Shown piece by piece: positions 3,262 to 31,392 of a DNA stretch of 34,449 nt. The notes below the pieces were generated by a model. The model was given only the letters and a program-made list of their open reading frames with translations, had not been told where the DNA came from and did not search any database. The stretch comes from Candidatus Falkowiibacteriota bacterium (GTDB lineage Bacteria > Patescibacteriota > Patescibacteriia > Patescibacteriales > Patescibacteriaceae). Both the position numbers and the translations under genes were made by a program. Position 1 is the stretch's first letter; each line of letters begins with the position of its first letter. The DNA lies in contig CAIUCZ010000025.1 of assembly GCA_903897785.1 (NCBI GenBank), positions 1 to 34,449 of the forward strand, written 5' to 3'.

Positions 3262-3291
3262 GTTATAACACAAGATTGTTATAATAATCAA
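3262..3291 (-). promoter_or_regulatory. Putative promoter of lepB-hisS-rpsU
   Basis: On the minus strand TTGATT (3286-3291) and TATAAC (3262-3267) are 18 nt apart. The -35 box overlaps the ppsA stop codon. If real, the word-family C repeat would lie in the lepB 5' leader. Confidence 0.35.
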
Positions 3292-5717
3292 GTTTTAGAG
3301 ACTTTTCTTTTTTTTGCCCCAACTTTAGTCGTTTTCTTCTTGCCAACCGTTACTTTTTTGCCTGCTCCGGCCAAATACGCCGTGGTTTTGACCACCACGT
3401 CCGGGTTCAAAGAAATACTGTCAATCCCCTCATCCATCAAGAACTTGGCAAAATCAGGAAAATCACTGGGTGCTTGGCCGCAAATGCCGACCTTGGTGTG
3501 CGTTTTTTTGCCCACCTCGATCAAATACTTGATCAAAGTCTTGACCGCGTCATTTTTCTCGTTGGAGACGCCGGCGATATGCAAATTGCCGGCATCGCGA
3601 TCAATCCCCAAAGTCATCTGTGTCAAGTCATTGGAACCGATGGAAAAGCCGTCAAAAATCTCGGCAAAATCATCAGCCAAAATTATATTGGCCGGAATTT
3701 CCGCCATAACATACACTTCCAAACCGTTGACATGCTGCTTGAGGCCATATTTTTCCATGGTTTTGAGCACCAGCAAACCCTCTTCCGTCGTCCGACACAT
3801 TGGCAACATCACTTTGAGATTATGCAAACCCATGTCCTCGCGCACTTTTTTAATGGCCGCGCACTCCAAAGCAAAGCCGGCTTCATAGCGCGGATCATAA
3901 TAACGGCTGGCCCCGCGCCACCCGAGCATCGGATTATCTTCCACCGGTTCATACAAATGCCCGCCGATCAAGTTGGCGTATTCATTGGTCTTGAAATCGG
4001 AAAACCGTAAAATCACATCTTTGGGATAAAACGCCGCGGCAATCAGAGCAATGCCTTGCGCCATGCGATCGATAAAATAATCGGCTTTATTTTTATAGCC
4101 TTCGGTCAGGTTATCAATCTGGTTTTTTAATTTTTTATCTTTCAGCGTGGCAAAATTGAGCAGTGCCAGCGGATGAATTTTAATATAGTTGGCGGTGATA
4201 AACTCTTCGCGCGCCAAACCGACGCCGTCATTGGGGATAAACGACGACGCAAACGCCATTTCCGGCGACGCGATATTCATCATGATCTTGGTCTTCGGCC
4301 GTTTCAAATTGGTAATATCGGTTTTATGAATCTTGAACGGCAGCTTGCCCTGATAAACAAAGCCGTCATCGCCCTCGGCACAGCTGACCGTCACCTCCTG
4401 GCCGGTTTTGATTTTAATACTGCCGTTTTCCGTGCCAACAACGCACGGCACGCCCAGCTCGCGCGAGACAATCGCCGCATGGCAGGTCCGGCCGCCTTTG
4501 TCGGTGACAATAGCGCTGGCGATTTTCATAATCGGCTCCCAATCCGGATCGGTCATTTCCGTTACCAAAACTTCGCCCGGTTTGAATTTGGCGATTTCTT
4601 TGACACTCATGATCCGTTTGACAATACCTGAGCCAATTTTACTGCCGACCGACTTGCCACTGGCAATCACTTTGCCGCGCGCGCCCAAACTGTATTCCTC
4701 CACCACATTTTTGTTGCGCGAACTGATGACGGTTTCCGGCCGCGCTTGGACGATGTATAATTTTTTTTCTTTGCCGTCCATCGCCCACTCAATGTCCATC
4801 GGCCGTTTGTAATGCTCTTCGATAATCATGCCCCAATCGGCCAATTGCAAGACTTGCTTGTCGGTAATCGACGGCTCGGTTTGCAAATGAAAAGCCACCG
4901 GCACTTCGCGCACCGATTTTTTGCCCGGCCGGCCGTAAATTTCTTTGACTCGTTTACGGCTGGTGTGGCGCGAAATAATTTGCCGCGTCGGCTTGAAAAC
5001 CAAAAATTCATCCGGACTGACATTACCTTGAACAATATAATCGCCCAAGCCGTAAATCGAACTGACCAAGACCGTGTTGGCAAAACCGGATTCCGTATCA
5101 ATCGTAAACATAACGCCGGAACAGCCGAGGTCGGAACGCACCATTTTTTGCACGCCGACGGATAAAGCGATTTTAAAATGGTCAAAGCCTTTGTCGGCGC
5201 GATAAGAAATCGCCCGATTGGTAAACAGCGAAGCAATACACATTTTGACGGCTTTCAATAACGCTTTTTCCCCGGAAATATTGAGGTAACTTTCTTGCTG
5301 GCCGGCAAACGACGCGTCCGGCAAGTCTTCGGCCGTAGCCGAGGAACGCACCGCCACGTGCAGGTTGGTCGTTTTATAAAAGGCGGACAAATCGCGATAA
5401 GCGGCGATTAGTTGCTCGCGCAGATCATCGGGAAACTTGGCGGCCATAATCGCTCGGCGCACTTTTGAGCCGCGCACGCCGATATCAACCACGCTCTTGG
5501 TGTTTAAATTTTTTAAAATGTCTTTAATCTGTTTTTTGAGGCCACTTTCTTCCAAAAAATAATTATAAGCCGCGGCCGTCGTGGCAAAACCGTTGGGGAT
5601 GCGCACACCCTTTGCTGCCAGCTTGCGATACATTTCCCCGAGCGACGCGTTTTTGCCGCCAACTAAACCGACGTCCTTGATCGAGACGTCTTTAAAGAAT
5701 TTGATTAATGGTTTCAT
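3288..5717 (-). CDS. ppsA: Phosphoenolpyruvate synthase
   Basis: The 809-residue protein converts pyruvate and ATP to PEP, AMP and phosphate; in reduced genomes it may also run toward pyruvate. The ATP-grasp domain opens with VGGKNASLGEMYRKL and contains RSSATAEDLPDASFAGQQ. The phosphohistidine swivel domain has GGRTCHAAIVSRELGVP, with the catalytic His near residue 413. The C-terminal PEP/pyruvate barrel includes SIGSNDLTQMTLGIDRD and the catalytic Cys in GICGQAPSDFPDF. A Lys-rich tail of about 20 residues is added. AAGGAG six nt before the ATG supports the start. Unlike the other central-carbon proteins in this window, every catalytic motif is intact. Confidence 0.96.
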   Translation of the reverse strand: MKPLIKFFKDVSIKDVGLVGGKNASLGEMYRKLAAKGVRIPNGFATTAAAYNYFLEESGLKKQIKDILKNLNTKSVVDIGVRGSKVRRAIMAAKFPDDLREQLIAAYRDLSAFYKTTNLHVAVRSSATAEDLPDASFAGQQESYLNISGEKALLKAVKMCIASLFTNRAISYRADKGFDHFKIALSVGVQKMVRSDLGCSGVMFTIDTESGFANTVLVSSIYGLGDYIVQGNVSPDEFLVFKPTRQIISRHTSRKRVKEIYGRPGKKSVREVPVAFHLQTEPSITDKQVLQLADWGMIIEEHYKRPMDIEWAMDGKEKKLYIVQARPETVISSRNKNVVEEYSLGARGKVIASGKSVGSKIGSGIVKRIMSVKEIAKFKPGEVLVTEMTDPDWEPIMKIASAIVTDKGGRTCHAAIVSRELGVPCVVGTENGSIKIKTGQEVTVSCAEGDDGFVYQGKLPFKIHKTDITNLKRPKTKIMMNIASPEMAFASSFIPNDGVGLAREEFITANYIKIHPLALLNFATLKDKKLKNQIDNLTEGYKNKADYFIDRMAQGIALIAAAFYPKDVILRFSDFKTNEYANLIGGHLYEPVEDNPMLGWRGASRYYDPRYEAGFALECAAIKKVREDMGLHNLKVMLPMCRTTEEGLLVLKTMEKYGLKQHVNGLEVYVMAEIPANIILADDFAEIFDGFSIGSNDLTQMTLGIDRDAGNLHIAGVSNEKNDAVKTLIKYLIEVGKKTHTKVGICGQAPSDFPDFAKFLMDEGIDSISLNPDVVVKTTAYLAGAGKKVTVGKKKTTKVGAKKRKVSKT

Positions 5718-9802: not shown

Positions 9803-9958
9803 ATCTTTTAATATTAATTCCGCCAAAGCGGCGGTAATTTTTATGTTAAAAAATCGGCCGGACGGTTGATATCCGCAGGAAAGAAATTGTTATGGTTAAA
9901 ATGATAACACTTTTTTTGATAAACAACAATCAATATAGCCAATTGATTCGGGATGTAG

Positions 9959-10011: not shown

Positions 10012-12393
10012 ATGCTTAAACAAAAAACTTGGTTATTTTTTGCCATGATTTTGGCAACCGTGTTTTTTTTCGCCGGCCGTTGCGTTCAAGCCGACACCTC
10101 GACGCCAAACGGCTGTACGGCCACTCCGGGCAACAATTGGTGCTCGCCCGGTTATTGCGCCATTCAAGCCGCTTGCCCGGCCGATGGCAACAACGGCAAT
10201 TGCAGTCCTCTGCCGTCCCTCGGCTGTTCTTTTGGCACGCAGATGATGAATGGCTGTTCGGTCTGCGTTTTGGATGCCAACGGTAATTACAATGTCAATC
10301 AATCGGCCGGCGCCACGCCGCCGAACAACAGTTGCAGTCCGGTTTCTAATTGCGCCTATGGCACGCAAATAGTTAACGGTTGCCCGACTTGCAATCCGGC
10401 GCCGACCAATCAACCGATCAACCCGACAAATAATCCGACACCGCCGGCCGGTGTCATTATTTTCCCCACCGATCAAACCGCTTGTCTGCATTACAAAGGC
10501 ACCTGGTGCGCCAATGCGACTGTGCCGGGCAGTAATATCAGCGGCACCTGTCTGATGGCCAACATGACTTGCCAAGCCACGCCGCCCAACACCTTTGCTT
10601 GTTGGAATGGCGCCACCCTGCCTGTCAGCGCCAGCGCCAGTTGCCCGATGATGCCGACAAATTCCGCCGCTTGCACTGCCGGCAACGGCCAATGGTGCGC
10701 CGCCAACAATAATCAACCAACCGGTTTCTGCATGAGCCGGTACCTGACTTGTCCGAACAATCTCACCCCGCCGGCCGGTCTGGGCACTTGTCCGGACGGT
10801 ACCAGCTTTGCCACCAGCTTGAGCGGTTGTCCGACTGCCAGTCAAACAATTCAACCGGTTATCCAGCCTCAACCGACACCGGCCACCACAACCATGCCGA
10901 CCACGCCGACAGTCAAACAATGCCCCGACGGTTCCATTGCGCCGATCAACGCCGCTTGCCTAAATCAATTAACTTATGTCGCCTGTCCGGACGGCCACTT
11001 TGTGACCGGCGGTCAAGCTTGCGCCAGCACTTCCAGCCCGATCACCGCTTGCACCAACGCCGGCGGAGTTTGGTGTCCCGGCAGTCAAACGCCCGGCCAG
11101 AATCTAAAAAACGGTTTTTGCAATTTTACCGGTGTCGCCTGCACGTCCGTCACTTTGAATCTCAATCCCGCGCCAACAACCGTTGCCGCGCCTTTGAGCG
11201 CCGGCGAGCAAAGCAAAGGCCGCAATAATTTAACTGCCGCCCAGAATTTACTCAACAATCTCAAGGCGACTTTTACCGCCAACAACGACCCTGCCAATCT
11301 GGCCAAAACCGTTGTTTTGCAAACTCAATTGTCAGCCATCACTTTGCCCCTGGACAGCACCAGTAATGCCAAACTGAATTTGATTTATAGCGAACTGTCC
11401 GTCTTGCAAACAGTCGCTCATAATCCCAAAGCTTCCGCCGCCAGCTTGGACGGCAAAGTGCAAACTCTGGCCATCGCCGATCTAAAAACTTTGGCCGTCC
11501 AATTCAACGATCAACTGATTAAAGCGCAAAAGCAAGCGGCCAGGCTGGTCGGCCAAGGTTTTGTTTTGCCCGCCGGCTTGCGCGCCGAGCTGGCTTCGGC
11601 CCAAACTCTGGCCGCCAGTTTAAAAACCGCCACCGCTTATGCCGCTGCCAAAATCTTGGTCGGGCAATTGCAAACCATGAAGGCTAATCTTGACGACGAC
11701 ATTATTTCATTAAATCAACTGACTCAAGCGGCCGGATTTTATGCCAAGCTGGGCAATGCTATTGCCAAAACCAAAACCGCTTTGACTAACGTGGCCGCGG
11801 CCGCCAAAAAAATCAAGCTTGGCACTGCCGGCGAAAAACAAAATTTGCAGACTGTGCAAACCGCTTATCAGAATCTAAAAACCAATCTTGCCGACGCGGC
11901 CGATCCGTTGGGAGATTTGCAAGCCACAGTGATCGATCCGTTGAATAAACTGAACTATCAAATTGCCGGCCTGGCCGCCATAACGCACTTGGCGTCATCG
12001 TATCAAGCTTATAACCGCCTGGAGCAAACCTATCTGACTTTGAACAACAAAAATCCGGAAGCAACCGTCACCACCCTGTTGTCGCAAGCCGCTGACGATC
12101 TGGCGCAAGTCAAACTTTATCTGCAAGATTCGACCAGTGCCGGCATGGCCGAAATTTTAACCGCTCTGACTGAAATAAATTCTCTTTTTAGCCAAGTCGA
12201 CCTCGCTTTACCAGGCCACGCTCCGGCTTCCGTGCCTCCCCAGTTGCAGCTGCCTACGCCAACCGCCGCTGATCAACTGCCCGCCCTGTCCGATCCGACT
12301 TCGGCCGGCGACAAAGCCGATCAAATCATGATATTCTTTCACTCCGCCAAACCGAGCGCAGTTTTGGGGATTAAGCTTTACCAAGCGCGCTAA
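10012..12393 (+). CDS. Large secreted Cys-rich protein with helical C-terminal half
   Basis: No family is recognised with confidence. The 793-residue protein has a signal peptide (about residues 1-27, ending CVQA). Residues about 28-390 are Cys-rich and modular. Two units have the form CSP-x-C-x-(F/Y)-GTQ-xx-NGC-xx-C. Three units have the form C-x-G-x-WC ... G-x-C ... C (GTWC, GQWC, GVWC). Three units begin CPDG. They are separated by Pro/Thr-rich linkers. The first type resembles antistasin-like spacing, a weak hint only. Residues about 395-760 are Ala/Leu/Lys-rich and helical, probably coiled coil. The protein should be exported and disulfide-bonded. It is divergent from the M4 protease and ends in a strong terminator. 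An adhesin or surface protein is the likeliest role. Confidence 0.85.
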   Translation: MLKQKTWLFFAMILATVFFFAGRCVQADTSTPNGCTATPGNNWCSPGYCAIQAACPADGNNGNCSPLPSLGCSFGTQMMNGCSVCVLDANGNYNVNQSAGATPPNNSCSPVSNCAYGTQIVNGCPTCNPAPTNQPINPTNNPTPPAGVIIFPTDQTACLHYKGTWCANATVPGSNISGTCLMANMTCQATPPNTFACWNGATLPVSASASCPMMPTNSAACTAGNGQWCAANNNQPTGFCMSRYLTCPNNLTPPAGLGTCPDGTSFATSLSGCPTASQTIQPVIQPQPTPATTTMPTTPTVKQCPDGSIAPINAACLNQLTYVACPDGHFVTGGQACASTSSPITACTNAGGVWCPGSQTPGQNLKNGFCNFTGVACTSVTLNLNPAPTTVAAPLSAGEQSKGRNNLTAAQNLLNNLKATFTANNDPANLAKTVVLQTQLSAITLPLDSTSNAKLNLIYSELSVLQTVAHNPKASAASLDGKVQTLAIADLKTLAVQFNDQLIKAQKQAARLVGQGFVLPAGLRAELASAQTLAASLKTATAYAAAKILVGQLQTMKANLDDDIISLNQLTQAAGFYAKLGNAIAKTKTALTNVAAAAKKIKLGTAGEKQNLQTVQTAYQNLKTNLADAADPLGDLQATVIDPLNKLNYQIAGLAAITHLASSYQAYNRLEQTYLTLNNKNPEATVTTLLSQAADDLAQVKLYLQDSTSAGMAEILTALTEINSLFSQVDLALPGHAPASVPPQLQLPTPTAADQLPALSDPTSAGDKADQIMIFFHSAKPSAVLGIKLYQAR

Positions 12394-20331: not shown

Positions 20332-20664
20332 TTACTTTAGTAGCTTTTTAATATTCTTTTTCAGCTCCGGCAAATCATTTCTTACATATTTCCAAACTTC
20401 GTCGGCATCAACATCAAAATATTGATGAATCATAAAATTTCTGGTATCCACGATGTCCAGCCAAGGAATTTCCGTATGTTTGGCCCTGAAACTTTCCGGC
20501 AGTTGCTTGGCCGCTTCGCCGATAATTTCAAAGCGCCGCACGACCGCGTCAATCAGCCAAGGTGTCTTAACAAATAAAGCTTGATTAAATTTCTTTGAAT
20601 ATTTTTCAATGGCAATAATACTATCCAGAATATGTTCCAAATAAACGCGGCTAAGTTTAACCAT
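20332..20664 (-). CDS. hepT: HepT-like HEPN toxin (DUF86)
   Basis: The 110-residue helical protein has the HEPN RNase signature R-x4-H-x-Y in TRNFMIHQYFDVD, near residue 76. The conserved RRFEIIGEAAKQL helix stands in the middle. HepT proteins are toxins of the HepT/MntA (type VII) system and are inactivated by AMPylation of the Tyr in this motif. The gene overlaps the upstream mntA by 8 nt, the usual order of antitoxin then toxin. The active-site residues are all present, so the toxin is probably functional. Confidence 0.9.
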   Translation of the reverse strand: MVKLSRVYLEHILDSIIAIEKYSKKFNQALFVKTPWLIDAVVRRFEIIGEAAKQLPESFRAKHTEIPWLDIVDTRNFMIHQYFDVDADEVWKYVRNDLPELKKNIKKLLK

Positions 20665-20947
20665 AAATCTGGATTAAATCTTTTTGCACGTATTTTTTGA
20701 CTCGCTTGTTTAAACTTTTAAAAGTTCCCAGATCCACCGTTCTTTTGGTGATTGCCTCTAAATCTCTTTTTAATCTGACCATAACCAAAATGCCGCCCAT
20801 ATCTTTTTCAAATTCAATCAATAAATCAATATCGCTATTTTTATTATGGTCGCCGCGCGCGTAAGAACCAAAAACAGCAGATTTTTTAACTTGGTATCTG
20901 CTTAAAATCGGGGCACTGTCTTTTTTTAATTTTTCAATTCTGCTCAT
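20657..20947 (-). CDS. mntA: MntA-like minimal nucleotidyltransferase antitoxin
   Basis: The 96-residue protein belongs to the minimal nucleotidyltransferase (pol beta fold) family. Its signature G-S-x10-D-x-D appears as GSYARGDHNKNSDIDLL, and a third acidic position appears in KRTVDLGTF. MntA proteins AMPylate HepT and so neutralise it. It overlaps hepT by 8 nt. A hairpin (21003-21032) separates it from murJ. Confidence 0.9.
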   Translation of the reverse strand: MSRIEKLKKDSAPILSRYQVKKSAVFGSYARGDHNKNSDIDLLIEFEKDMGGILVMVRLKRDLEAITKRTVDLGTFKSLNKRVKKYVQKDLIQIYG

Positions 20948-21125: not shown

Positions 21126-22760
21126 TTATATTCCCCTCACTTCTCCCATATCCTCATTCAACGCCGTTTTTCTGCGGCCTAACCGGCAAGCCACAGCCGT
21201 CCACATCTGACCGACCTCTTCCACTCTGAGCAAATAACAAACCAAAACATAAACCAACACGCCGGTGATACCGGCCACTGCACCCTGCAAAAACACGCCA
21301 CTCACATGCGTCATCGCTTGCGGATCGCCAAACGGCTGTTTGGCTGCTTGCGCCACCAAACCGCCGATCACGGCCGCCACGGTAAACTTGAGCGCCGCTT
21401 TAATTAATTTGCCATCAGACAGCTTGCCCAAACGCCGACGCAAGAAAATCGTCATCGTGGCAAAATTAAATACATTGGCCAAAGAAAACGCCAAAGCCAA
21501 ACCAACCACGCCCATCGAGCGGGCTAAAACAATGGCTAAAATAATATTCAGGCCGTCGCCGAACAAACCGATCAAAAACGGCGTCTTGGTATCATGTTGA
21601 GCAAAAAACATCCGCGACAAGAGCGGGATGGCCGCTTGGGCAAAAAACGACAAGCAAAATAAACCCAAAGTATTAAACGTTAAAATTGTTTCATTCCAGC
21701 CGAAATTCCCACTGCCCAAAACAAAGCGCACCAGCTGAGCGCGCAAGACCAGGGTCAGGGCGGTAGCTGGCAAGATAAAAAACCAGACTTGGCGCAAGGT
21801 TTTGGTAAACGTCTTTTTTAATTCCGGATAATCATCGGCCTGCGCCGCCAAAGTGGGAAAAACCGCCACCGCAAAAGAAATACCAAACAAAGAGACGGCA
21901 AAAGCTTGCAAATTATTGGCCAGAGAAAAAATTGCCAGCGAACCGGAAACCAAAGTGGAGGCCATAATCGTCGTCACCAGCAAATTTAATTGTGTCGTCA
22001 ACAAATCCAAAGTCCGGCCGGACATCATGATCCAAATTTTCTTCATCAGTTTGTCGCGCCAGCCAAACACAAATTGGTAATTGAATTTTAGGCTGATGAC
22101 CGCCGGCAGCTGAATTAACAAATGGCAAGCCGAACCGATGACCACGCCCCAAGCCAACCCCCAAACGCCCCAGCGGTTAGTTAAATATAATGCCCCAAAA
22201 ATAATACCGAGATTATAAAAAATCGGCGGCAAAGAATAAGCGACAAACCGTTTATATGATTGCAAAATGCCGCCAAAGATACTGGAGACACAGAGTAAAA
22301 TCGGCGACAAAAACATAATGCGCGCCAAGCTGATCACTTGATCCATTTTGGCGCCGGAAAAACCGGGCGTAATCAAGCGCATTAGTTGCGGCGCAAAAAT
22401 CTCGCCGGCCAAGCCCAAGATTGCCACCACCAAAAGCAAGGTGTTAAGAATCCCCGACGCCAAACGCCAAGCTTGCTGATGGTCTTCGGCTCGATCGGTT
22501 TTAATGAGCGAAGTAAACAGCGGCACAAAACCGGCCGACAGCGCCCCGAGCACAATTAAATTAAAAATAAAATCCGGCACGCGAAAAGCGGCGTAATAAA
22601 CATCCAAGGTGTCGCCGGCACCGAACTTGCCGGCCAGAATATGATCGCGCACCACGCCCAGCAAACGGGAAAGCAAAGAAGACGTGGCGACTAAAAAAGC
22701 GGCCGCGGCGATGTTATCGATTTTTTTACAGAATAGCTTCTTCCACATAGCGGTGTTCAT
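21126..22760 (-). CDS. murJ: Lipid II flippase MurJ
   Basis: This 544-residue polytopic membrane protein has about 14 TM helices and belongs to the MOP superfamily (MviN/MurJ). Typical segments are SSLLSRLLGVVRDHILAGKF near the N-terminus, DVYYAAFRVPDFIFNLIVLG after it, and SRMFFAQHDTKTPFLIGL in the second half. It moves lipid-linked peptidoglycan precursor across the membrane. The length is normal. It starts about 100 nt downstream of the iPGM-like gene on the same strand, with a palindromic repeat between them. Confidence 0.94.
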   Translation of the reverse strand: MNTAMWKKLFCKKIDNIAAAAFLVATSSLLSRLLGVVRDHILAGKFGAGDTLDVYYAAFRVPDFIFNLIVLGALSAGFVPLFTSLIKTDRAEDHQQAWRLASGILNTLLLVVAILGLAGEIFAPQLMRLITPGFSGAKMDQVISLARIMFLSPILLCVSSIFGGILQSYKRFVAYSLPPIFYNLGIIFGALYLTNRWGVWGLAWGVVIGSACHLLIQLPAVISLKFNYQFVFGWRDKLMKKIWIMMSGRTLDLLTTQLNLLVTTIMASTLVSGSLAIFSLANNLQAFAVSLFGISFAVAVFPTLAAQADDYPELKKTFTKTLRQVWFFILPATALTLVLRAQLVRFVLGSGNFGWNETILTFNTLGLFCLSFFAQAAIPLLSRMFFAQHDTKTPFLIGLFGDGLNIILAIVLARSMGVVGLALAFSLANVFNFATMTIFLRRRLGKLSDGKLIKAALKFTVAAVIGGLVAQAAKQPFGDPQAMTHVSGVFLQGAVAGITGVLVYVLVCYLLRVEEVGQMWTAVACRLGRRKTALNEDMGEVRGI

Positions 22761-22865: not shown

Positions 22866-23654
22866 CTAAACCAAACTTTTCCCACTTGCCGTTTCAATCC
22901 CTAAAATTTTTAACATCGTCGCTTCCACATCTCCCAAACTCCCTGCCGGCACCAAGGCCGACAAATCTCCGTCCGGCGCTTCCGGCTGGCCCAAGTTCTG
23001 GCCGACAAAGTTTTGCCCCACCAAAATCAACGGCAGCGGATTATTTGTCAGCTCTTTGACTACCATATCGGTACGCATATCCAACATTAATTCCGCTTTG
23101 CCGTGCCGGCCGACAACCAGTGCCACCCCATCAGCCTGCAAGACCGCTTTAATCATCCGACCTAAACAATCATCAATAAACTGCAAAGTTTTAACGGTCG
23201 CGGCCAAATCGCCGCTCTTGCCGACCACCTCCGCGTCAACCAAATCAATTTGCATCACGTCGTAATTCTCACTACCGATTGCCTTGATCGCCTCATCGGT
23301 AATTTCCGATAACGCCGCGTCGCTCAAATTTTCATCCGGCGACGTGGGAATAAGCTGGCGTTCTTCGGCCGGCCAAGTTTTGTCTTGGCCGTTGTTCAAC
23401 CAGGCAACAAAATTAACAAAACCGACGCTTTGAGCAATTTTGATTTGGCGCAAATTGTGTTCGGCCAGGGTCTGACTTAAATTTAGTAAATCATCGCTGG
23501 GCGATAAAACTAACGCCGGATAAGTCTGGCATAAATGCAAAAAATTAGGCAATTTTGCCTGCGTTAAAGCATTGCCCGGTCCGGCCGGAGCGATTCCCCA
23601 GCCATCCAAGACAATTAAAGCTACTAATTTTGGACGCGCATTATCATCAGCCAT
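22866..23654 (-). CDS. Degenerate, truncated iPGM-like protein
   Basis: The 262-residue protein resembles both ends of cofactor-independent phosphoglycerate mutase (usually about 510 residues). It starts with VALIVLDGWGIAPAGPGNAL, keeping the first metal Asp. The catalytic Ser motif (GNSEVGH) and the whole inserted transferase domain are absent. The rest follows the iPGM C-terminal pattern (LRQIKIAQSVGFVNFVAWLN, RQLIPTSPDENL, FIDDCLGRMI) with ligands changed. DMVGHTG has become EVVGKSG (His to Lys), ADHGNAE has become GRHGKAE (Asp to Arg), and the AHT His is gone. It is very unlikely to be a mutase. A structural, regulatory or new role, or slow decay, are possible. The reading frame is intact. 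Confidence 0.8.
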   Translation of the reverse strand: MADDNARPKLVALIVLDGWGIAPAGPGNALTQAKLPNFLHLCQTYPALVLSPSDDLLNLSQTLAEHNLRQIKIAQSVGFVNFVAWLNNGQDKTWPAEERQLIPTSPDENLSDAALSEITDEAIKAIGSENYDVMQIDLVDAEVVGKSGDLAATVKTLQFIDDCLGRMIKAVLQADGVALVVGRHGKAELMLDMRTDMVVKELTNNPLPLILVGQNFVGQNLGQPEAPDGDLSALVPAGSLGDVEATMLKILGIETASGKSLV

Positions 23655-23776
23655 ATTTTTTCTTTGTTATCGGCAAAAATAAACCTTGTCGGGTTTTCTG
23701 CCAACCAAAGACTAGCTTAGCACAAAAGCGGAAAAAAATTAAGCTCTGGGCAAAAAGCTTAATCTTTATGACAAAT

Positions 23777-24049
23777 TTACAAATTTTTATAGACATCGTG
23801 CCGACCGATGGAAAAAAATAAAATATCACCGTTGGTCTCACGCATAAAAACAATTCGGTAGCTGCTAGAAACGGAGATTGACCAAAAATTTTTCAGATCT
23901 CCATGCAAACGATGCAATCGCAAAGACGGATGAAGCGGGTTGGCTTTAAAAATTTTTTCTTTACTAGCGGCGGCTTCAACAATTTGCTTTGGTAAACTAT
24001 TTAGTTGTTTAACAAAGTCAGCCGCATATTTTATATTAGCGACGATCAT
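23777..24049 (-). CDS. RelE/ParE superfamily toxin
   Basis: The 90-residue protein has the RelE fold pattern. The N-terminal helix part is FVKQLNSLPKQIVEAA, then HPSLRLHRLHGDLKNFWSIS, and the last strands are SSYRIVFMRETNGDILFFSIGRHDVY. RelE toxins cleave mRNA on the ribosome, while ParE toxins poison gyrase; the sequence does not settle which. It overlaps the upstream antitoxin gene by 14 nt. The Arg in SYRIVF and the His/Tyr near the C-terminus (RHDVY) match RelE/YoeB positions. Confidence 0.87.
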   Translation of the reverse strand: MIVANIKYAADFVKQLNSLPKQIVEAAASKEKIFKANPLHPSLRLHRLHGDLKNFWSISVSSSYRIVFMRETNGDILFFSIGRHDVYKNL

Positions 24050-24275
24050 AAATCAAGTCAGCTAAAGAATTAGCCGTGATAGCTTTACCCGCCTTATATT
24101 CTCTTTGTGCTTTGCGAGCCATCGCCAATAGCTCTTTAGCGGAAATCAAGTCCTTGTCTTGCTCAATCAGCTCTCTGATGTAATCACTAACCGAGGCAAA
24201 ACCCCTTTCCTTGGATAGAGTTTTAATTTGAGCAACGGTTTGTGCCGGCAGGGATAAACTTACAATTTGACGCAT
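24036..24275 (-). CDS. Ribbon-helix-helix antitoxin
   Basis: The 79-residue protein has an N-terminal RHH DNA-binding domain: strand RQIVSLSLPAQTVAQIKTLS, then ERGFASVSDYIRELIEQD. A toxin-binding tail follows (SAKELLAMARKAQREYKAGK). It resembles ParD/CopG antitoxins and should repress its own operon. The palindrome TGTATTAC-AACT-GTAATACA in the promoter (24315-24334) is the likely operator. It overlaps the toxin gene by 14 nt. Confidence 0.87.
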   Translation of the reverse strand: MRQIVSLSLPAQTVAQIKTLSKERGFASVSDYIRELIEQDKDLISAKELLAMARKAQREYKAGKAITANSLADLIYDRR

Positions 24276-24312
24276 ATTTTTTGCTTAATTATTTATTGAG
24301 ATAATTAAACTT

Positions 24313-24342
24313 ATTGTATTACAACTGTAATACATTTGTCAA
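24313..24342 (-). promoter_or_regulatory. Toxin-antitoxin promoter and operator
   Basis: On the minus strand consensus TTGACA (24337-24342) and TACAAT (24313-24318) are 18 nt apart. A perfect 8-bp palindrome (24315-24334) lies over the spacer and -10 box. The -35 box overlaps the TGA stop codon of the enolase-like gene. Confidence 0.8.
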
Positions 24343-25595
24343 GCCTGGTTATCTATCGCCAACAGCCGATTATACTTGACCACTCGTTCCCCGCGCGACA
24401 ACGATCCGACTTTCAAATATTCCGCACCAATTGCTATTGCCAAATCAACAATAAAATCATCATTGGTCTCGCCATAATCTTGCGACAAGACCAATTCATA
24501 ACCGTGCTTGCGCGCCAAGATTAAATAATCCAGCAGCTGACTGACGGTCGCATTATGCGCCAAGCGCGCCACCGTCGCCGTGCCAATTTTTTTGTTCAAC
24601 CGCTCCCGCAACTTATTTTCTTTAGTCAAAAATAATTCATCACCGGCCAAAACCACCTTGCCGGCCAGCGCCTTAGTCATCGCCTGCCAACCATCGTCAT
24701 CGTCTTCGGCCAAACCGTCTTCCAGATAGCCGATGGGATATTTTTCCAGCCAAGCGTAATATAAGTCAGTCAATGTTTGCGCGGAAAAATAATTGCGATC
24801 CAGCGAAAAAACATAATGGCCCAGACTTTCATCGTAAAGCTGATTGGCGCCCAAGTCCAAACCGAGTTGATAATCGCGGCCCGAATAATAACCGGCCGCC
24901 AAAGCCGCGGCTTGGATTAATTCCAGAGCTTGCGCTGAAGAAACAATATCCGGCGCATAACCGCCTTCACTGCCCACATCCGTGTCAAACCCGGCAGCCG
25001 CTAAAATAATTCCCAGATGATGATAAACTTCCGTGCCCAGTTTGATTTGCTCGCTCAACTTTTTGACCGTCGGTAAAATTAGATATTCTTCAAAGTCTAA
25101 ATTAGTATCGCCATAACGTCCGCCGTTGAATAAGTTAATAATCAAACGCACTTCGACAGACTCAGTGCCTACGGCAACAGGCTCACCTATGGCCTTGCTT
25201 AAAAATTTATATAAAGGCTCATCGCCTGATGCCGCGCGCCAACCGGCTAAAGACAAAGGCAAAACGCTATTAGCCGCCGTTTCTAATTCGTGTTCGTTTT
25301 GCCAAGCCAATAATTTCTTGTCCAACTCTTGCGGCGTCATTTCTTTGTTTAAAATTTGCGGCACCAAATCCGAATTTAACAAAGCGGCACTGCGCGTCAT
25401 CAACGGCCGATTGGCCAAAGCAAAGGCGGTATGTTGCCGGCCGTCGCGTCCGGCAAAAGCTTGATGGTCGGCCAATTCATTCAATCCGGCACTGGCAGTC
25501 ACGCTTTTACCGCCGGCTAAAACAAAATCAGCGGCTAAAGTAAAATAGCCGTTACTGTCCAAAATCGGACGGACTAATATATTTTTAATAATCAT
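24339..25595 (-). CDS. Enolase-like protein with changed active site
   Basis: The 418-residue protein aligns along the enolase family (usual length about 420-430). It has ILDSNGYFT, NLFNGGRYGDTNLDFEEY, VGSEGGYAPD, GLDLGANQLYD, LEDGLAEDD, GDELFLT, SQDYGETND and LKVGSLSRGERVVKYNRLL. By yeast numbering the metal ligands D246, E295 and D320 are kept, as are E168, E211 and K396. The catalytic base K345 is Arg, H159 is Tyr, H373 is Gln, the phosphate ligands R374/S375 are Asp/Tyr, and the SGAST substrate loop is lost. About 12 codons (25151-25187) before the NGG motif are a DNA repeat also found in pgk. Enolase activity is doubtful. The fold is probably intact. Confidence 0.82.
   Translation of the reverse strand: MIIKNILVRPILDSNGYFTLAADFVLAGGKSVTASAGLNELADHQAFAGRDGRQHTAFALANRPLMTRSAALLNSDLVPQILNKEMTPQELDKKLLAWQNEHELETAANSVLPLSLAGWRAASGDEPLYKFLSKAIGEPVAVGTESVEVRLIINLFNGGRYGDTNLDFEEYLILPTVKKLSEQIKLGTEVYHHLGIILAAAGFDTDVGSEGGYAPDIVSSAQALELIQAAALAAGYYSGRDYQLGLDLGANQLYDESLGHYVFSLDRNYFSAQTLTDLYYAWLEKYPIGYLEDGLAEDDDDGWQAMTKALAGKVVLAGDELFLTKENKLRERLNKKIGTATVARLAHNATVSQLLDYLILARKHGYELVLSQDYGETNDDFIVDLAIAIGAEYLKVGSLSRGERVVKYNRLLAIDNQA
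25151..25187. repeat. Short repeat element inside the enolase-like gene
   Basis: The plus-strand segment cttcgacagactcagtgcct continues with acggcaacaggctcacc. It contains a hairpin gcct..aggc. The core at 25153-25175 matches 19 of 23 nt with the element in pgk (26809-26831), which lies in the other orientation. It is in frame. Confidence 0.75.
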
Positions 25596-25611
25596 AAATT
25601 TTAATTAACGC

Positions 25612-25768
25612 AAAAGATGCGAATTTATACACGAATACCGCAAATTACATAGCAAAAAATGCGAATTAAATACTAAAATTTAAATTTTTAATTAATACTG
25701 GTTAGCACGTTCGCATTTTTCGCGGTTTAAATTCGTGGTATTCGTGTATAAATTCGCATTTTTCGCAT
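25612..25768. repeat. Word-family B inverted repeat 3' of pgk
   Basis: The words gatgcgaatttatacacgaatacc on the left and their complements on the right (ggtattcgtgtataaattcg) form arms of about 60 nt around an AT-rich centre. It ends at the pgk stop codon and separates pgk from the enolase-like gene. Confidence 0.85.
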
Positions 25769-27039
25769 TAATGAATTCTCCAACTACACAGCCTCTTCAA
25801 ACCCGGCAGACTTTCTCCGCTCAAATAAGCCAGACTCGCTCCGCCGCCGGTCGACACCCAATCGATTTCTGTTTCAACCTGCGCCCTGTTTAAGGCTTGC
25901 ACCGTTTCGCCACCGCCGACCAAAGAATAATAATGATGCGCGTGCGGTTTTAGGGCGATGGCCCGGGCGATAAACAAAGTGCCTTGGGCAAAGCGCTTAT
26001 CTTCAAACCGACCCATCGGTCCGTTCCAGATTACTGTCGCCGAGTGTTTGATTATTTCATTAAAATGTCTCATTGTCTCGGGGCCGATATCTAAAATCAT
26101 ATCACGTGGTAAAATTTTGTCATCCCGGCGGATGCCGGCCTGCCCGTTCCGGTTCGGGCGGGGATCCACTCCTATATTTTTTACTTGCGGCCGCGCGCCG
26201 TCCAAATCCGCCAGCACCACAACATCGGCCGGTAAAATTATTTTTTTGCTAGTTAACTTTTTTGCCAAAGCCACACTTTCGTCATCAGCCAGCGAACGGC
26301 CGATATTTATTTTTTTCGCTTTGAAAAAGTTATTCGCCAGCGCCCCGCCGATTAAAATATGATCGGCCTTGGGCAAGAATTTTTTGACTAATTTTATTTT
26401 GGTGTTTAATTTGGCGCCGCCAATCACCATTGCCAGCGGTTTTTGCGGATTGGCCGCTTTGTCCAAATGTTCAATTTCGGCTTGCAGCTGCCAGCCGGCA
26501 AAACTCGGTAAAAACTTGGTGATAGCCGAGACCGAAGCGTGCGCCCGGTGGCAGACGGCGAAGGCTTCGTTAATATAAACATCGGCCAGGTCGGCCAGTT
26601 GGCGGGCAAAGACGACGCTGTTCTTTGTTTCACCCGGCCAAAAGCGCAAATTCTCCAGCATGACTAAATCGCCGGCCGCCAAATTATTAATCGTCGCCGC
26701 CGTTTTTTTAGAATTTAATTCGGTGGCTAAGTTTACTTTTTTCTTCAGTTGTTTGGCCAACCAATTAGCCAAAGGTTCGACGGAAAATTTGGCGCGATTC
26801 TTAACGCGGCCGCAGGCACCGAGCTTGTCGAGGTGACCGGAAGGCAAAATTTCCGGCTCGCCCAAATGTGTCGCCACAATCAACTTGGCGCCATGTTTTA
26901 ATAAAAACTTGATCAACGGCAACGCCGCTTTTAATTTAAAGTCTTCGGCGATCTTACCGCCAGCCAGCGGCACGTTAAAATCCACGCGCAAAAAAACTAT
27001 TTTGTTTTTAAAATTAATCTCCTTGGATTTAAACTTCAT
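25768..27039 (-). CDS. pgk: Phosphoglycerate kinase with two repeat-derived segments
   Basis: The 423-residue protein is longer than the usual 390-400. PGK converts 1,3-bisphosphoglycerate and ADP to 3-phosphoglycerate and ATP. Clear motifs are FLRVDFNVPL, VMLENLRFWPGE, CHRAHAS, VIGGAKLNTKIK, VIWNGPMGRFE, LVGGGETVQAL and STGGGASLAYL. The 3-PG-binding Arg38 is Lys (EDFKLKAALP) and Arg65 is Glu (THLGEPE). The Arg122 and Arg170 positions are kept. The extra length comes from two in-frame segments of repeat DNA: one codes GVDPRPNRNGQAGIRRDDK (26119-26169), the other GHLDKLGACGR (around 26809-26831). Activity is uncertain. The gene is bracketed by word-family B repeats. No Shine-Dalgarno is seen. 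Confidence 0.92.
   Translation of the reverse strand: MKFKSKEINFKNKIVFLRVDFNVPLAGGKIAEDFKLKAALPLIKFLLKHGAKLIVATHLGEPEILPSGHLDKLGACGRVKNRAKFSVEPLANWLAKQLKKKVNLATELNSKKTAATINNLAAGDLVMLENLRFWPGETKNSVVFARQLADLADVYINEAFAVCHRAHASVSAITKFLPSFAGWQLQAEIEHLDKAANPQKPLAMVIGGAKLNTKIKLVKKFLPKADHILIGGALANNFFKAKKINIGRSLADDESVALAKKLTSKKIILPADVVVLADLDGARPQVKNIGVDPRPNRNGQAGIRRDDKILPRDMILDIGPETMRHFNEIIKHSATVIWNGPMGRFEDKRFAQGTLFIARAIALKPHAHHYYSLVGGGETVQALNRAQVETEIDWVSTGGGASLAYLSGESLPGLKRLCSWRIH
26119..26169. repeat. GC-rich palindromic repeat inserted in frame in pgk
   Basis: The plus strand reads gtcatcccggcggatgccgg, then a nested palindrome (cctgcccg..cgggcgg), then ggatccac. Length is about 51 nt, 17 codons. 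The same repeat is intergenic at 770-795 and 22768-22847. The coded peptide lies in a surface linker before the LDIGPETM motif. Confidence 0.85.
26809..26831. repeat. Short repeat element in pgk shared with the enolase-like gene
   Basis: On the minus strand it reads tcgacaagctcggtgcctgc then ggc, 19 of 23 identical to 25153-25175. It codes for part of LDKLGACGR, an extra segment after THLGEPE. Confidence 0.75.
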
Positions 27040-27242: not shown

Positions 27243-28298
27243 TTATTTCAATTTCGTTAGCACCAACTCAACTTGCAAATTTTTCCCGCCTCGCTTATAG
27301 CCAATCAACATTTTATCACCAATCCGATAATCAACCAACAGCCCGGCCAAATCATTGGCGCCGGACAATTCCACATTGTCGGCCGTCAATAAAATATCAC
27401 CCACGCGCAAACCGCCCGCGGCCGCCGGACCGTTCGACGTCACGCCGACCACCCGTAAGCCAACTTGGCCGTAAGTGCTGACCACACTATCGAGCGGCAC
27501 ATAACTGACACCGACGCTCACGCGATTAATGGTTTGGTGCGCCAGCAAATCCGGCAAAAGAACGGTCAACTGATCAGCCGGAGTCAATTGGCTTTTATTA
27601 TTAAACAAACCGACCACATTACCGCTAAAATCAACCAAGGTTAAATAATTGGCGGCCGACACATTGGCCGACAATAAAATATTATTATTATAAACATCGC
27701 TCGAACGCACGCCGTCCGCGGTTTGGTTGAGCTGATTAATGTGCACAGGCAAAGCCCGGCCGGGCCAGCCATAAGCCAGCAATGATTGGCCGAGCGTCAA
27801 TTGATTTACTTTGCTTAATTTCTTAACCGACAAATTATTAGCCCCGGTCAAATGCAAAAAAGTCAAGCCGCTGACCGAATCATAAATCGCTTGACCGACC
27901 GGCAAAACCTGATGATCAACGGTCACCGCCACTTCATCCAGCCAATTGCCTTTGACCGGCGCGTTGCTCACCAGCCAGCCGTCGCTGGTCAAAATCAAAG
28001 CTTGGCTGTCAGCTTGGTTAAACACATAATAACCGCCGGCTTTGGTTTTAAATAAACCGACCAAGCCCGAACGCAAATCTTGCGCCACCTGCGCCGTACG
28101 ATCATCTTGATTAACCGTCACTTGATTGGCCGTCCGGACAATCACATTGCTTTGTTTATTAAGGTTGTCTTGGCTGATGGTCGGCAGAGCGGCCAGCTTG
28201 GCGGAAAAATTATAATTCAACCAAACGCCGCCGCCGGCGACAATCACAATCATCAACACGAGCAATAGCCAATTATTTTTTAGCTGTCCGATGGTCAT
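27243..28298 (-). CDS. HtrA-like protein with PDZ domain and no catalytic triad
   Basis: The 351-residue protein has one N-terminal TM anchor (about residues 10-28). A trypsin-like domain follows (ALILTSDGWLVSNAPV, LGQSLLAYGWPG, FSGNVVGLFNN), then a PDZ domain (GPAAAGGLRVGDILLTADNVELSG). The layout matches membrane-anchored HtrA/DegS/DegP. By alignment the His motif TNxHV is SNAPV, the Asp motif DLAVLK is GLTFLHL, and the Ser motif GNSGG is ANYLT. The triad therefore appears lost. It may be a PDZ scaffold or peptide sensor outside the membrane. It is the first of a run of genes ahead of pgk, from which it is separated by a long repeat. Confidence 0.8.
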   Translation of the reverse strand: MTIGQLKNNWLLLVLMIVIVAGGGVWLNYNFSAKLAALPTISQDNLNKQSNVIVRTANQVTVNQDDRTAQVAQDLRSGLVGLFKTKAGGYYVFNQADSQALILTSDGWLVSNAPVKGNWLDEVAVTVDHQVLPVGQAIYDSVSGLTFLHLTGANNLSVKKLSKVNQLTLGQSLLAYGWPGRALPVHINQLNQTADGVRSSDVYNNNILLSANVSAANYLTLVDFSGNVVGLFNNKSQLTPADQLTVLLPDLLAHQTINRVSVGVSYVPLDSVVSTYGQVGLRVVGVTSNGPAAAGGLRVGDILLTADNVELSGANDLAGLLVDYRIGDKMLIGYKRGGKNLQVELVLTKLK

Positions 28299-28320: not shown

Positions 28321-29139
28321 CTAAATCCAGCGTGCCGACAGCAAAACCGCCAGCCACGACAGAACGGTTAAAATTAAATAGAGTCTGATTTTACTTTTGT
28401 CCAGTTTGCCCGCCAGTTTGTCGCTAATCAAACCGACGATAACGTAATAAGCCGAGGCCCACAAAAAGGCCAACAAATAATAAGCCAACGGCAAATACGA
28501 CAAGACCACAAACCACTCCAAAAGTAAGGCCGCCGCCACGGCAAAATAAGGCCAAGCGTTTTTAATCGCCACCTTGCCCGACCAGAAAAATTGATACAAA
28601 ATCAAGCCCAAACCCAAAGCCACACCCAAAGAAGGCACGCCCACCAACGGGCTGGCTGAAATAATCATACCCGGCAGGATCAATGAAGGAATCGATTGGC
28701 CCAAAAAATCATGCCAGCCGTAGGCCGTGCCGGCCAGTAAAAAAGTTAAGAAAAAATTGACATAAAACGATAGGCTGTCCAAAGAAAAAGCGGTGTAGCG
28801 CGCCGGCAAATAAAGATAAAAATAAACCCAGCGCCAATAAAGATAAGTCGCGATTAAAGCCGCGGCCATAATCGTTTGCACCAGCCAAATTTGATTTTGC
28901 GGCACAATCGTCAAATAACCCAAAACAATCAGTGACGAAGCCAAAGGCAAAGGCAAAAAGTTCAGCCAACCGTGGCGATAAGCCAACAGCCAAGCCGTTA
29001 AAATATTCAAAACTATCAAGGCGCCTGCCCAACACCAAATCAGCGGCGACTGATACAAAGACAGTTGCAGCAAAAGCCACATTAGAATCGAAGCGCCAAA
29101 CGGCAAAAATTGTGTCAACATAAAAGTTATTTTAACCAA
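28321..29139 (-). CDS. Polytopic membrane protein of unknown function
   Basis: The 272-residue protein is almost wholly hydrophobic, with about 8-9 TM segments (for example QFLPFGASILMWLLLQLSLY, ASSLIVLGYLTIV, LILTVLSWLAVLLSARW). I see no motif that identifies a family. It overlaps the end of the upstream gene by 13 nt, so the two are translationally coupled and probably act together in the membrane. The HtrA-like gene follows 22 nt downstream, extending the operon. Confidence 0.75.
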   Translation of the reverse strand: MVKITFMLTQFLPFGASILMWLLLQLSLYQSPLIWCWAGALIVLNILTAWLLAYRHGWLNFLPLPLASSLIVLGYLTIVPQNQIWLVQTIMAAALIATYLYWRWVYFYLYLPARYTAFSLDSLSFYVNFFLTFLLAGTAYGWHDFLGQSIPSLILPGMIISASPLVGVPSLGVALGLGLILYQFFWSGKVAIKNAWPYFAVAAALLLEWFVVLSYLPLAYYLLAFLWASAYYVIVGLISDKLAGKLDKSKIRLYLILTVLSWLAVLLSARWI

Positions 29140-29746: not shown

Positions 29747-30793
29747 TTAGTAATACACGTTTTTAGTATCCAAATCCATCTTCCGATTCTCGCCGGTCTT
29801 GAAATCGATGATATTGCGCGCCACCAGCTGATCGATCGCGTTATTCATGGTGGTCATCCCCTGCTTGACCGAGGTTTGAATAATATTGCTGATTTGGCTG
29901 ATCTGGTTGCGCCGAATCAGGTTGGCCACGCCTTGGTTGTTAATCAAAATCTCCCGCGCTACGCACAAACCGCCATTGACGCGCGGAAAAATCTGCTGGG
30001 CCACCACGGCGCGCAAAGACAAAGACAACTGGGTCAAAACTTGATTTTGCTGATGCGCCGGAAAAGCGTCGATAACGCGCGAGATACTGTCGGCCGCGCT
30101 CATGGTGTGCAAAGTCGACAAGACCAAATGGCCGGTTTCCGCCGCCGTCAGCGCGGCGTTAATCGTTTCCAAATCGCGCATTTCGCCGACCATAATTACA
30201 TTCGGATCTTGACGCAAGGCCGAACGCAAAGCCACGGCAAAACTGACCGTGTCCTGGCCGATCTCCCGCTGTTCGACAATGCTTTGCGCGTCGGTAAACA
30301 CATATTCAATCGGGTCTTCAATTGTTATAATATGACTGCGCCGCTCGTGATTCATGATGTCGATCATAGTTGCCAGCGTGGTGGACTTGCCGGACCCCGA
30401 CGGACCGGTAATCAAAACCAAGCCGTCGCGCAAACGCGTCAGGTTGTATAGCACCTCGCTAAAATCCACCTGCTCCGGCGTCGGCACGACAAAAGGAATC
30501 AAGCGTGCGTTCAACACCAGTTGGCCGCGTTGATAATGCAAATTGATGCGAAAGTTAAAATCCAACACTTGGCGCGAAATATCTTTGTCCTTGGTTTGCA
30601 CAAAAGCGGCAAAAGCTTGTTCGCCCAGCAAAGCGCCGACCGCCCGTTCCAATTCGGCCGATTCGATTTTCGGTTCATCCAATTTAACCAATTCCGTATC
30701 AATGCGCAGGGCCGGCTGCGCGCCGGACACTAAATGTACGTCGGACGCCTTGCGCTCGATTGCTTGTTTCAAATAGGCTTCGATTTCCATCAT
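29747..30793 (-). CDS. pilT: Type IV pilus retraction ATPase PilT
   Basis: The 348-residue hexameric secretion-type ATPase has an N-terminal domain with ASDVHLVSGAQPALRID. Walker A is LITGPSGSGKSTTL (about residues 130-139), the Asp box is IITIEDPIEYVF, Walker B is NVIMVGEMRDLETINAAL, and the His box is TGHLVLSTLHT. The C-terminal NLIRRNQ element corresponds to the AIRNLIRE motif of PilT, which favours PilT over PilB. It drives pilus retraction at the inner membrane. The start may be either of two adjacent ATG codons (30793 or 30790). The pilin-like gene upstream fits a pilus role. Confidence 0.95.
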   Translation of the reverse strand: MMEIEAYLKQAIERKASDVHLVSGAQPALRIDTELVKLDEPKIESAELERAVGALLGEQAFAAFVQTKDKDISRQVLDFNFRINLHYQRGQLVLNARLIPFVVPTPEQVDFSEVLYNLTRLRDGLVLITGPSGSGKSTTLATMIDIMNHERRSHIITIEDPIEYVFTDAQSIVEQREIGQDTVSFAVALRSALRQDPNVIMVGEMRDLETINAALTAAETGHLVLSTLHTMSAADSISRVIDAFPAHQQNQVLTQLSLSLRAVVAQQIFPRVNGGLCVAREILINNQGVANLIRRNQISQISNIIQTSVKQGMTTMNNAIDQLVARNIIDFKTGENRKMDLDTKNVYY

Positions 30794-30860: not shown

Positions 30861-30945
30861 AGTTCATAAAGTTCTTAAAGTTATAAAGTTCATAAAGATT
30901 CGTGCTTTATAAACTTTATGAACTTTATAACCTTATAAACTCAAC
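30861..30945. repeat. Word-family A inverted repeat 3' of the pilin-like gene
   Basis: Left ttaaagttataaagttcata, right ctttatgaactttataacct, with a short loop around gattcgtg. It overlaps the pilin stop codon (30925) by about 20 nt. A short tag of gattttaga words follows at 30808-30833 before pilT. Confidence 0.78.
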
Positions 30946-31392
30946 CGGCAATGCGGAAGTACTCGTCACGTATTTCGGCGTCGCCACATTCGGCCCGGCT
31001 TTGTACGGATCGGAATCGCGGCCCAGACAAAAGACCAGATGGTAAGATGCGCCGCCGTTGTCTTGGCTGTAAAGATAATCATAACCGGCCGTACCCGGAC
31101 AGGCACCGTCGGTTTTCGGCGAAGGATTGGTCGGAACAACCGTCATATAGACAGTGGAAGCATCGGAAATCACTCCGCCCGCCACCACCGCTGCCGTCAA
31201 CGGATAGGTGTTATTTTTGTTATAGTAGGACTCCAAGGCGGACATAATCCGCCCCACATCGGAAACGCGTTGCGCGTCGCGCGCTTTAACTTTGGTGGAA
31301 TTATAAGAAACAGTCGCCATGGTTGTCAGAATGGCGATAATCGCAATCACCACCAAGAGTTCGACAATAGTAAAGCCGGTTTGTTTGTGCAT
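30925..31392 (-). CDS. Type IV pilin-like protein
   Basis: The 155-residue protein begins MHKQTGFTIVELLVVIAIIA, a prepilin leader of five residues, then mature F with E at position 5 and the hydrophobic helix. RDAQRVSDVGRIMSALESYY follows, the usual pilin/pseudopilin second part, then a small globular domain with Cys in GACPGTAGYDYLYSQ and VFCLGRDSD, probably a disulfide loop. It resembles the pilin at 1-533. Its C-terminus overlaps the word-family A repeat, so the last residues may be repeat-derived. pilT lies about 130 nt downstream on the same strand. Confidence 0.92.
   Translation of the reverse strand: MHKQTGFTIVELLVVIAIIAILTTMATVSYNSTKVKARDAQRVSDVGRIMSALESYYNKNNTYPLTAAVVAGGVISDASTVYMTVVPTNPSPKTDGACPGTAGYDYLYSQDNGGASYHLVFCLGRDSDPYKAGPNVATPKYVTSTSALPVEFIRL

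What the first reader, a model, noticed from the sequence alone, without database searches (positions are those of the whole stretch)
22866..27039. A cluster of lower-glycolysis homologues with altered active sites
The iPGM-like, enolase-like and PGK genes cover three consecutive glycolytic steps on one strand. The iPGM-like protein lacks its transferase domain and most metal ligands, the enolase-like protein lacks the catalytic Lys and substrate ligands, and PGK has changes at two 3-PG arginines. All frames are intact. Either the lineage carries decayed duplicates next to true copies elsewhere, or it has lost the pathway and kept the proteins for another role. ppsA in the same window is intact. 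The residue losses are seen; the shared history is inference.
Basis: partly seen in the sequence, partly recalled or inferred. Interest (0 to 1): 0.75.

Follow-up and report, generated by a model that had tools for sequence, protein, structure and literature searches.

The report
Retained dead copies of glycolysis enzymes
In this group of tiny bacteria, two enzymes of sugar breakdown have been replaced by working copies elsewhere in the genome, yet the old copies, now without the parts needed for catalysis, are kept in place and protected by natural selection in dozens of related species, which suggests that they do another, still unknown job.

Summary
Window 22866-27039 (-) carries pgk, an enolase homologue with 6 of 12 catalytic or ligand residues changed (catalytic Lys to Arg; metal triad kept), and a 262-aa iPGM homologue without transferase domain that keeps 2 of 7 metal/nucleophile positions. 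The PGK part is ordinary: R36K and a variable R62 are common across the order, and it is the only PGK. The genome (869 kb, 96% complete; relatives Candidatus Falkowbacteria/Parcubacteria) has an intact enolase and an intact dPGM elsewhere, so the pathway is not lost. The cluster is the remnant of an order-wide pgk-eno-gpmI-gpmI operon. Across 47 genomes, the operon enolase is altered only where a second, fully intact enolase exists (27 of 31 versus 0 of 16). The iPGM-like protein belongs to the second gpmI paralogue; 44 genomes hold a transferase-less form, and 40 of these have another complete PGM. In relatives the altered genes stay open and evolve with dN/dS about 0.04-0.17, like their neighbours. 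Best reading: resident enzymes displaced by unlinked isozymes, then kept as pseudoenzymes. What the retained proteins do is not shown. The window's own lineage is a long branch with no close relative, so selection there is inferred.

The parts
22866..23654 (-). iPGM-like pseudoenzyme (gpmI_b lineage): phosphatase-domain remnant, 262 aa, transferase domain absent, metal site degenerate
   Evidence: Pfam Metalloenzyme 2.4e-26; residues; groups with the gpmI_b clade; Foldseek best hits are iPGM structures, model pLDDT only 61
23777..24049 (-). RelE/YafQ/HigB-like toxin-family ORF between the two genes; low GC (0.37); absent at this place in the relatives whose loci were laid out; no partner antitoxin ORF of 80 aa or more seen
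   Evidence: Pfam, E-values 3.7e-5 to 7.7e-4, all below gathering cut-offs; GC; relatives' loci
24339..25595 (-). Enolase-like pseudoenzyme (operon copy): S42E, H159Y, K342R, H370Q, R371D, S372Y; metal triad, E168, E209, K393 kept
   Evidence: AF2 pLDDT 80, E. coli enolase TM 0.86
25768..27039 (-). Phosphoglycerate kinase, the only one in the genome; R36K and R62E are common order-level variation
21126..22760 (-). murJ (lipid II flippase), conserved downstream neighbour in the family
   Evidence: TIGR01695 315 bits, above cut-off; synteny
27243..28298 (-). PDZ-domain protein, conserved upstream neighbour
   Evidence: PF13180 1.1e-11; synteny
28321..29139 (-). Conserved upstream protein without Pfam match (272 aa)
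29747..30793 (-). PilT-type secretion/twitching ATPase, conserved upstream neighbour
   Evidence: T2SSE 1e-46; synteny
3288..5717 (-). ppsA, intact PEP synthase
   Evidence: NF005057 1140.7 bits, cut-off 598

Best explanation
The window holds the remnant of an ancestral pgk-eno-gpmI_a-gpmI_b operon. Shown by comparison: in the two families concerned, enolase and PGM catalysis is available from unlinked canonical enzymes (a second enolase; GpmA, or a full iPGM elsewhere), and the resident operon copies have lost catalytic residues (eno) or the whole transferase domain plus metal ligands (gpmI_b) while keeping open frames, fold-level conservation, position and purifying selection in relatives. 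Inferred: the resident proteins are kept for a non-catalytic role that they already had as enzymes, most likely as structural or regulatory partners of PGK or of the replacement enzymes, so that displacement of catalysis let the active sites go while the scaffold stayed. Not shown: which partner, and lack of activity in vitro.
For: A second canonical enolase (12/12 residues) is present in all 27 genomes with an altered operon enolase, and none of 16 single-enolase genomes is altered. Of 44 genomes with a transferase-less gpmI_b, 40 have a dPGM or another full iPGM. dN/dS of altered enolases and truncated gpmI_b in close pairs is 0.04-0.17, like PGK, PDZ and EnoA. Active-site positions are lost in excess of other conserved positions in most altered enolases (G096 0.61 vs 0.93 kept; G075 0.50 vs 0.84; window 0.50 vs 0.67). 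Window frames keep the coding GC pattern; the chance of no stop at neutral saturation is 3.5e-11 (eno) and 3.5e-7 (iPGM-like). Gene order is conserved.
Against: Altered enolases evolve faster relative to PGK (ratio 0.98 vs 0.62), so constraint is partly relaxed. Genus g4 has no operon enolase at all, so the role is dispensable somewhere. The enolase correlation rests on few independent events (2-3 changes on the gene tree). The window's two proteins sit on long branches (1.76 and 1.38) and have no close relative, so selection in this lineage is not measured. No partner is identified. Four genomes have no other PGM found (incomplete MAGs of 84-95%).
Confidence: 0.6

Rival explanations
1. Slow decay: after displacement the operon copies are only losing function, and intact frames persist because little time has passed or because the frames keep translational coupling between pgk and murJ.
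For: Faster evolution of altered enolases; g4 lost the operon enolase entirely; the window iPGM-like protein is shorter than any complete sister form (262 aa) and keeps only 35% of conserved non-active positions.
Against: dN/dS of 0.04-0.17 in altered copies; the truncated gpmI_b is intact in 44 genomes of several families; normal codon-position GC and no stops in the window.
Confidence: 0.25
2. Neofunctionalised enzyme: the enolase-like protein acts on a new, probably non-phosphorylated substrate, using the kept metal and carboxylate half of the site.
For: E168, E290 and K393 are kept in 27/27 altered copies, D246 in 25, D317 in 23, while S42, S372 and H370 are kept in only 3, 8 and 10. The enolase superfamily is known for diverse chemistry on the same metal site (general knowledge).
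Against: Some copies lose metal ligands (G002, G075, G076, G096). Replacement residues differ between lineages (14 states at position 42), unlike a new conserved active site. The truncated gpmI_b next door shows no conserved new site.
Confidence: 0.12
3. Artefact: misassembly, contamination or frame errors created the fragment and the odd residues.
For: The genome is a 78-contig draft.
Against: Same genes in the same order in independent genomes; intact frames; same transferase-less architecture in 43 other genomes; contamination 0.17%.
Confidence: 0.02

Closest known systems
Enolase / phosphopyruvate hydratase (TIGR01060, PF00113)
   Same: Full-length homologue, same fold (TM 0.86 to E. coli enolase), metal triad kept
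   Different: Catalytic Lys342, loop Ser42, His159, and the His370-Arg371-Ser372 phosphate site are lost; below the TIGR01060 cut-off
2,3-BPG-independent phosphoglycerate mutase (GpmI, TIGR01307)
   Same: Phosphatase (alkaline-phosphatase-fold) half is homologous; encoded next to pgk and eno as in relatives
   Different: No transferase domain, no Ser nucleophile, metal ligands mostly replaced
Pseudoenzymes in general (inactive enzyme homologues kept for other roles)
   Same: Loss of catalytic residues with retention under selection in relatives
   Different: No function or partner known; two consecutive glycolytic steps in one operon affected together, alongside unlinked isozymes
Non-orthologous or isozyme gene displacement in CPR glycolysis (patchy eno and PGM reported in PMC7304191)
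   Same: Patchy and mixed histories of enolase and PGM in CPR bacteria
   Different: That paper (passages searched) does not describe retained inactive operon copies; it suggests that some PGMs were missed as too divergent

Membership tests
Active enolase | Catalytic base Lys342 (E. coli numbering) | tested here: not met
   K342R in the window; the equivalent residue in M. tuberculosis enolase is Lys335, the catalytic lysine (PMC10619443)
Active enolase | Loop Ser42 and phosphate ligands His159, His370, Arg371, Ser372 | tested here: not met
   E, Y, Q, D, Y in the window
Active enolase | Mg ligands Asp246, Glu290, Asp317 | tested here: met
Active enolase | Enolase fold | tested here: met
   AF2 pLDDT 80; TM 0.86-0.88 to solved enolases
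Active enolase | NCBI equivalog cut-off TIGR01060 (300 bits) | tested here: not met
   271.3 bits; 23 of 27 altered copies (relatives' copies) do pass it
iPGM (GpmI) | Transferase domain (iPGM_N, PF06415) | tested here: not met
   absent from the protein and from the whole genome
iPGM (GpmI) | Ser nucleophile and two-metal site | tested here: not met
   Ser absent; only D14 and H445 kept
Phosphoglycerate kinase | Full-length PGK with nucleotide and 3-PG site | tested here: met
   PF00162 7e-117; R113, R146, K197 kept; R36K and R62E are common in the order
Pseudoenzyme retained for another role | Catalytic residues lost while the gene stays under purifying selection | tested here: inconclusive
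   met in relatives; for the window only indirect evidence, no close relative held
Pseudoenzyme retained for another role | No catalytic activity, and a demonstrated other function | not testable with these tools
   needs purified protein or genetics

The most novel reading that the evidence does not exclude
The retained enolase barrel has kept the metal and carboxylate half of its active site and given up the phosphate half, and together with the transferase-less iPGM forms a glycolysis-linked sensor, scaffold or new enzyme specific to this branch of Parcubacteria, arising after unlinked isozymes took over catalysis.
Probability: 0.15. Interest if true: 0.8.

Novelty: new variant of a known kind. 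Interest (0 to 1): 0.6.

Why it matters
It gives a comparative series (intact single enolase, second enolase with a lightly altered operon copy, strongly altered copy, lost copy) for turning a central metabolic enzyme into a pseudoenzyme. It can therefore test directly whether glycolytic enzymes in minimal genomes carry non-catalytic duties that outlive their chemistry. It also warns that annotation is misleading here: 23 of 27 catalytically altered enolases pass the curated cut-off for active enolase, and the truncated gpmI_b is easily counted as a PGM, so pathway maps of CPR bacteria can credit the wrong gene.

Tried and rejected
Lost pathway: rejected, since intact enolase and dPGM are present. 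PGK decay: rejected, since the changes are order-wide. Misassembly: rejected. Residues at shifted positions: not seen in alignments with intact relatives. A first column choice for iPGM metal ligands was wrong by a few positions and was replaced by motif-based columns. A first impression that both tandem iPGMs lack the catalytic His (Bst H123) came from using the second His of VHSH; at the right column it is kept in 94 of 102. The ~252-aa ORF between pgk and eno was guessed to be tpiA; it is SIMPL/DUF541. Number of independent transferase-domain deletions: the tree asks for 2 but does not exclude 1; unresolved. The phylogenetically independent test of the enolase correlation has too few pairs to be significant. 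YN00 dN/dS failed for many pairs, so NG86 values were used there; saturated pairs were not interpreted. Literature searches for pseudoenzymes in Patescibacteria, inactive enolase paralogues and Falkowbacteria glycolysis found nothing relevant.

Full report
WHAT IS THERE. On the minus strand of the window, in transcription order, lie a PilT-type ATPase (29747-30793), a protein without Pfam match (28321-29139), a PDZ protein (27243-28298), PGK (25768-27039), an enolase homologue (24339-25595), a small RelE/YafQ-like ORF (23777-24049), an iPGM homologue (22866-23654) and murJ (21126-22760). The genome is a draft of 869 kb in 78 contigs, 96% complete. Named relatives of the same order are Candidatus Falkowbacteria (Parcubacteria group): locus L062 carries that title and is the contig of genome G094.

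RESIDUES. The enolase homologue has S42E, H159Y, K342R, H370Q, R371D, S372Y against E. coli enolase. It keeps E168, E209, the three metal ligands and K393. The iPGM homologue lacks the transferase domain and keeps D14 and H445 out of seven metal/nucleophile positions. iPGM catalysis needs both domains to close on the substrate (PMC5382265), so mutase activity is not expected (inference). PGK has R36K and R62E, but in the order 56 of 71 aligned PGK rows have Lys at 36, and position 62 varies widely; this is the genome's only PGK. I therefore treat PGK as a normal enzyme of this lineage.

TRUE COPIES ELSEWHERE. The genome has a second enolase, 429 aa, all 12 residues intact, 603.6 bits to TIGR01060 (cut-off 300). 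It also has a GpmA-type dPGM of 230 aa with the catalytic residues in place, 329 bits to NF010713 (cut-off 305). No iPGM_N domain is found anywhere in it, and ppsA in the window is intact. So lower glycolysis is present; the operon copies are not the catalytic ones.

THE OPERON IS ANCESTRAL. In 111 genomes of the order the usual arrangement is U272-PDZ-pgk-(SIMPL)-eno-gpmI_a-gpmI_b, in some families followed by acetate kinase and murJ. gpmI_a and gpmI_b are tandem full-length paralogues with complete catalytic sets: 94 of 102 full-length rows (which include iPGMs outside the operon) have all eight checked positions. The window's iPGM-like protein belongs to the gpmI_b clade. In family f15 all operon gpmI_b genes seen are transferase-less (about 280-365 aa) and gpmI_a is gone. 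The same form occurs in f19 and in one f14 genome beside an intact gpmI_a, and in genera g1 (window) and g5 of the window's own family. Genera g2-g4 of that family have full-length copies, degenerate in g2 and g4 and nearly canonical in g3. Whether the domain was lost once or more often is not resolved.

DISPLACEMENT AND ALTERATION GO TOGETHER. For 47 genomes with a readable operon enolase and a genome-wide enolase search, 27 of 31 with a second enolase have altered operon copies, and none of 16 with a single enolase does. The four unaltered ones with a second enolase have changes in the loop around S42. All second enolases are intact at all positions. The Fisher value (3e-9) overstates the case, because the trait is clustered on the tree (2-3 changes). 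In genus g4 the operon enolase is gone altogether. For PGM, 27 of 44 genomes with a transferase-less gpmI_b have a dPGM, 13 have another full iPGM, and 4 incomplete MAGs have neither found.

SELECTION. Close pairs give dN/dS of 0.04-0.17 for altered enolases and truncated gpmI_b, against 0.05-0.19 for PGK and PDZ, and 0.03-0.12 for the second enolase (saturated values left out). Altered enolases nevertheless evolve faster relative to PGK (median ratio 0.98) than intact operon enolases do (0.62). In most altered copies, active-site positions are lost in excess of other conserved positions. E168, E290 and K393 are kept in all 27, the metal Asp residues in 25 and 23, but S42 in only 3, S372 in 8 and H370 in 10. 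The window itself has no close relative in the collections. Its copies sit on long branches, yet have normal codon-position GC and no stops where neutral saturation would give one almost surely. The predicted enolase-like structure is a good enolase fold (pLDDT 80, TM 0.86-0.88). The iPGM-like model is weak (pLDDT 61) but its best matches are iPGM phosphatase domains.

MECHANISM. Shown: homology, residue losses, replacement genes, order-wide operon, purifying selection in relatives. Inferred: the resident proteins had a second, non-catalytic duty that outlived their chemistry, plausibly contact with PGK, with the replacement enzymes, or with each other; this is my preferred reading at 0.6. Ongoing decay (0.25) is the main rival and may be furthest along in the window's lineage. 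A new enzyme activity (0.12) is favoured by the kept metal/carboxylate half of the site, and opposed by the scatter of replacement residues between lineages.

NOVELTY. Pseudoenzymes and isozyme displacement are both known. CPR enolase and PGM are known to be patchy (PMC7304191). I found no paper in the open library that describes retained inactive enolase or transferase-less iPGM in this group; subscription papers were not searched. An annotation consequence is concrete: 23 of 27 altered enolases exceed the curated cut-off and would be named enolase.

Noticed in passing
window 23777-24049: RelE/YafQ/HigB-like toxin-family ORF of low GC inserted between the enolase-like and iPGM-like genes, with 289 bases upstream to the enolase-like gene; no antitoxin partner of 80 aa or more seen.
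   Followed up: partly
window 20332-20947: HepT-like ribonuclease next to a MNT-type nucleotidyltransferase, a typical HepT/MNT toxin-antitoxin pair.
   Followed up: no
window 3-533 and 30925-31392: Two paralogous type IV pilin-like proteins with N-methylation motifs (41% identical), the second near the PilT-type ATPase gene.
   Followed up: partly
window 7466-9826: Thermolysin-type M4 peptidase with propeptide motif, probably secreted.
   Followed up: no
order-wide loci, e.g. L113 6798-10083: Tandem full-length gpmI_a and gpmI_b, both with complete catalytic sets, in many families of the order; why two iPGMs are kept side by side is unexplained.
   Followed up: partly
L047, L048, L049 (G009-G011): Genus g5 of the window's family has an intact operon enolase and a truncated gpmI_b that group with family f15 rather than with its own family, possibly operon transfer or long-branch attraction.
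   Followed up: no
window 10012-12393: 793-aa ORF on the plus strand without any Pfam match.
   Followed up: no
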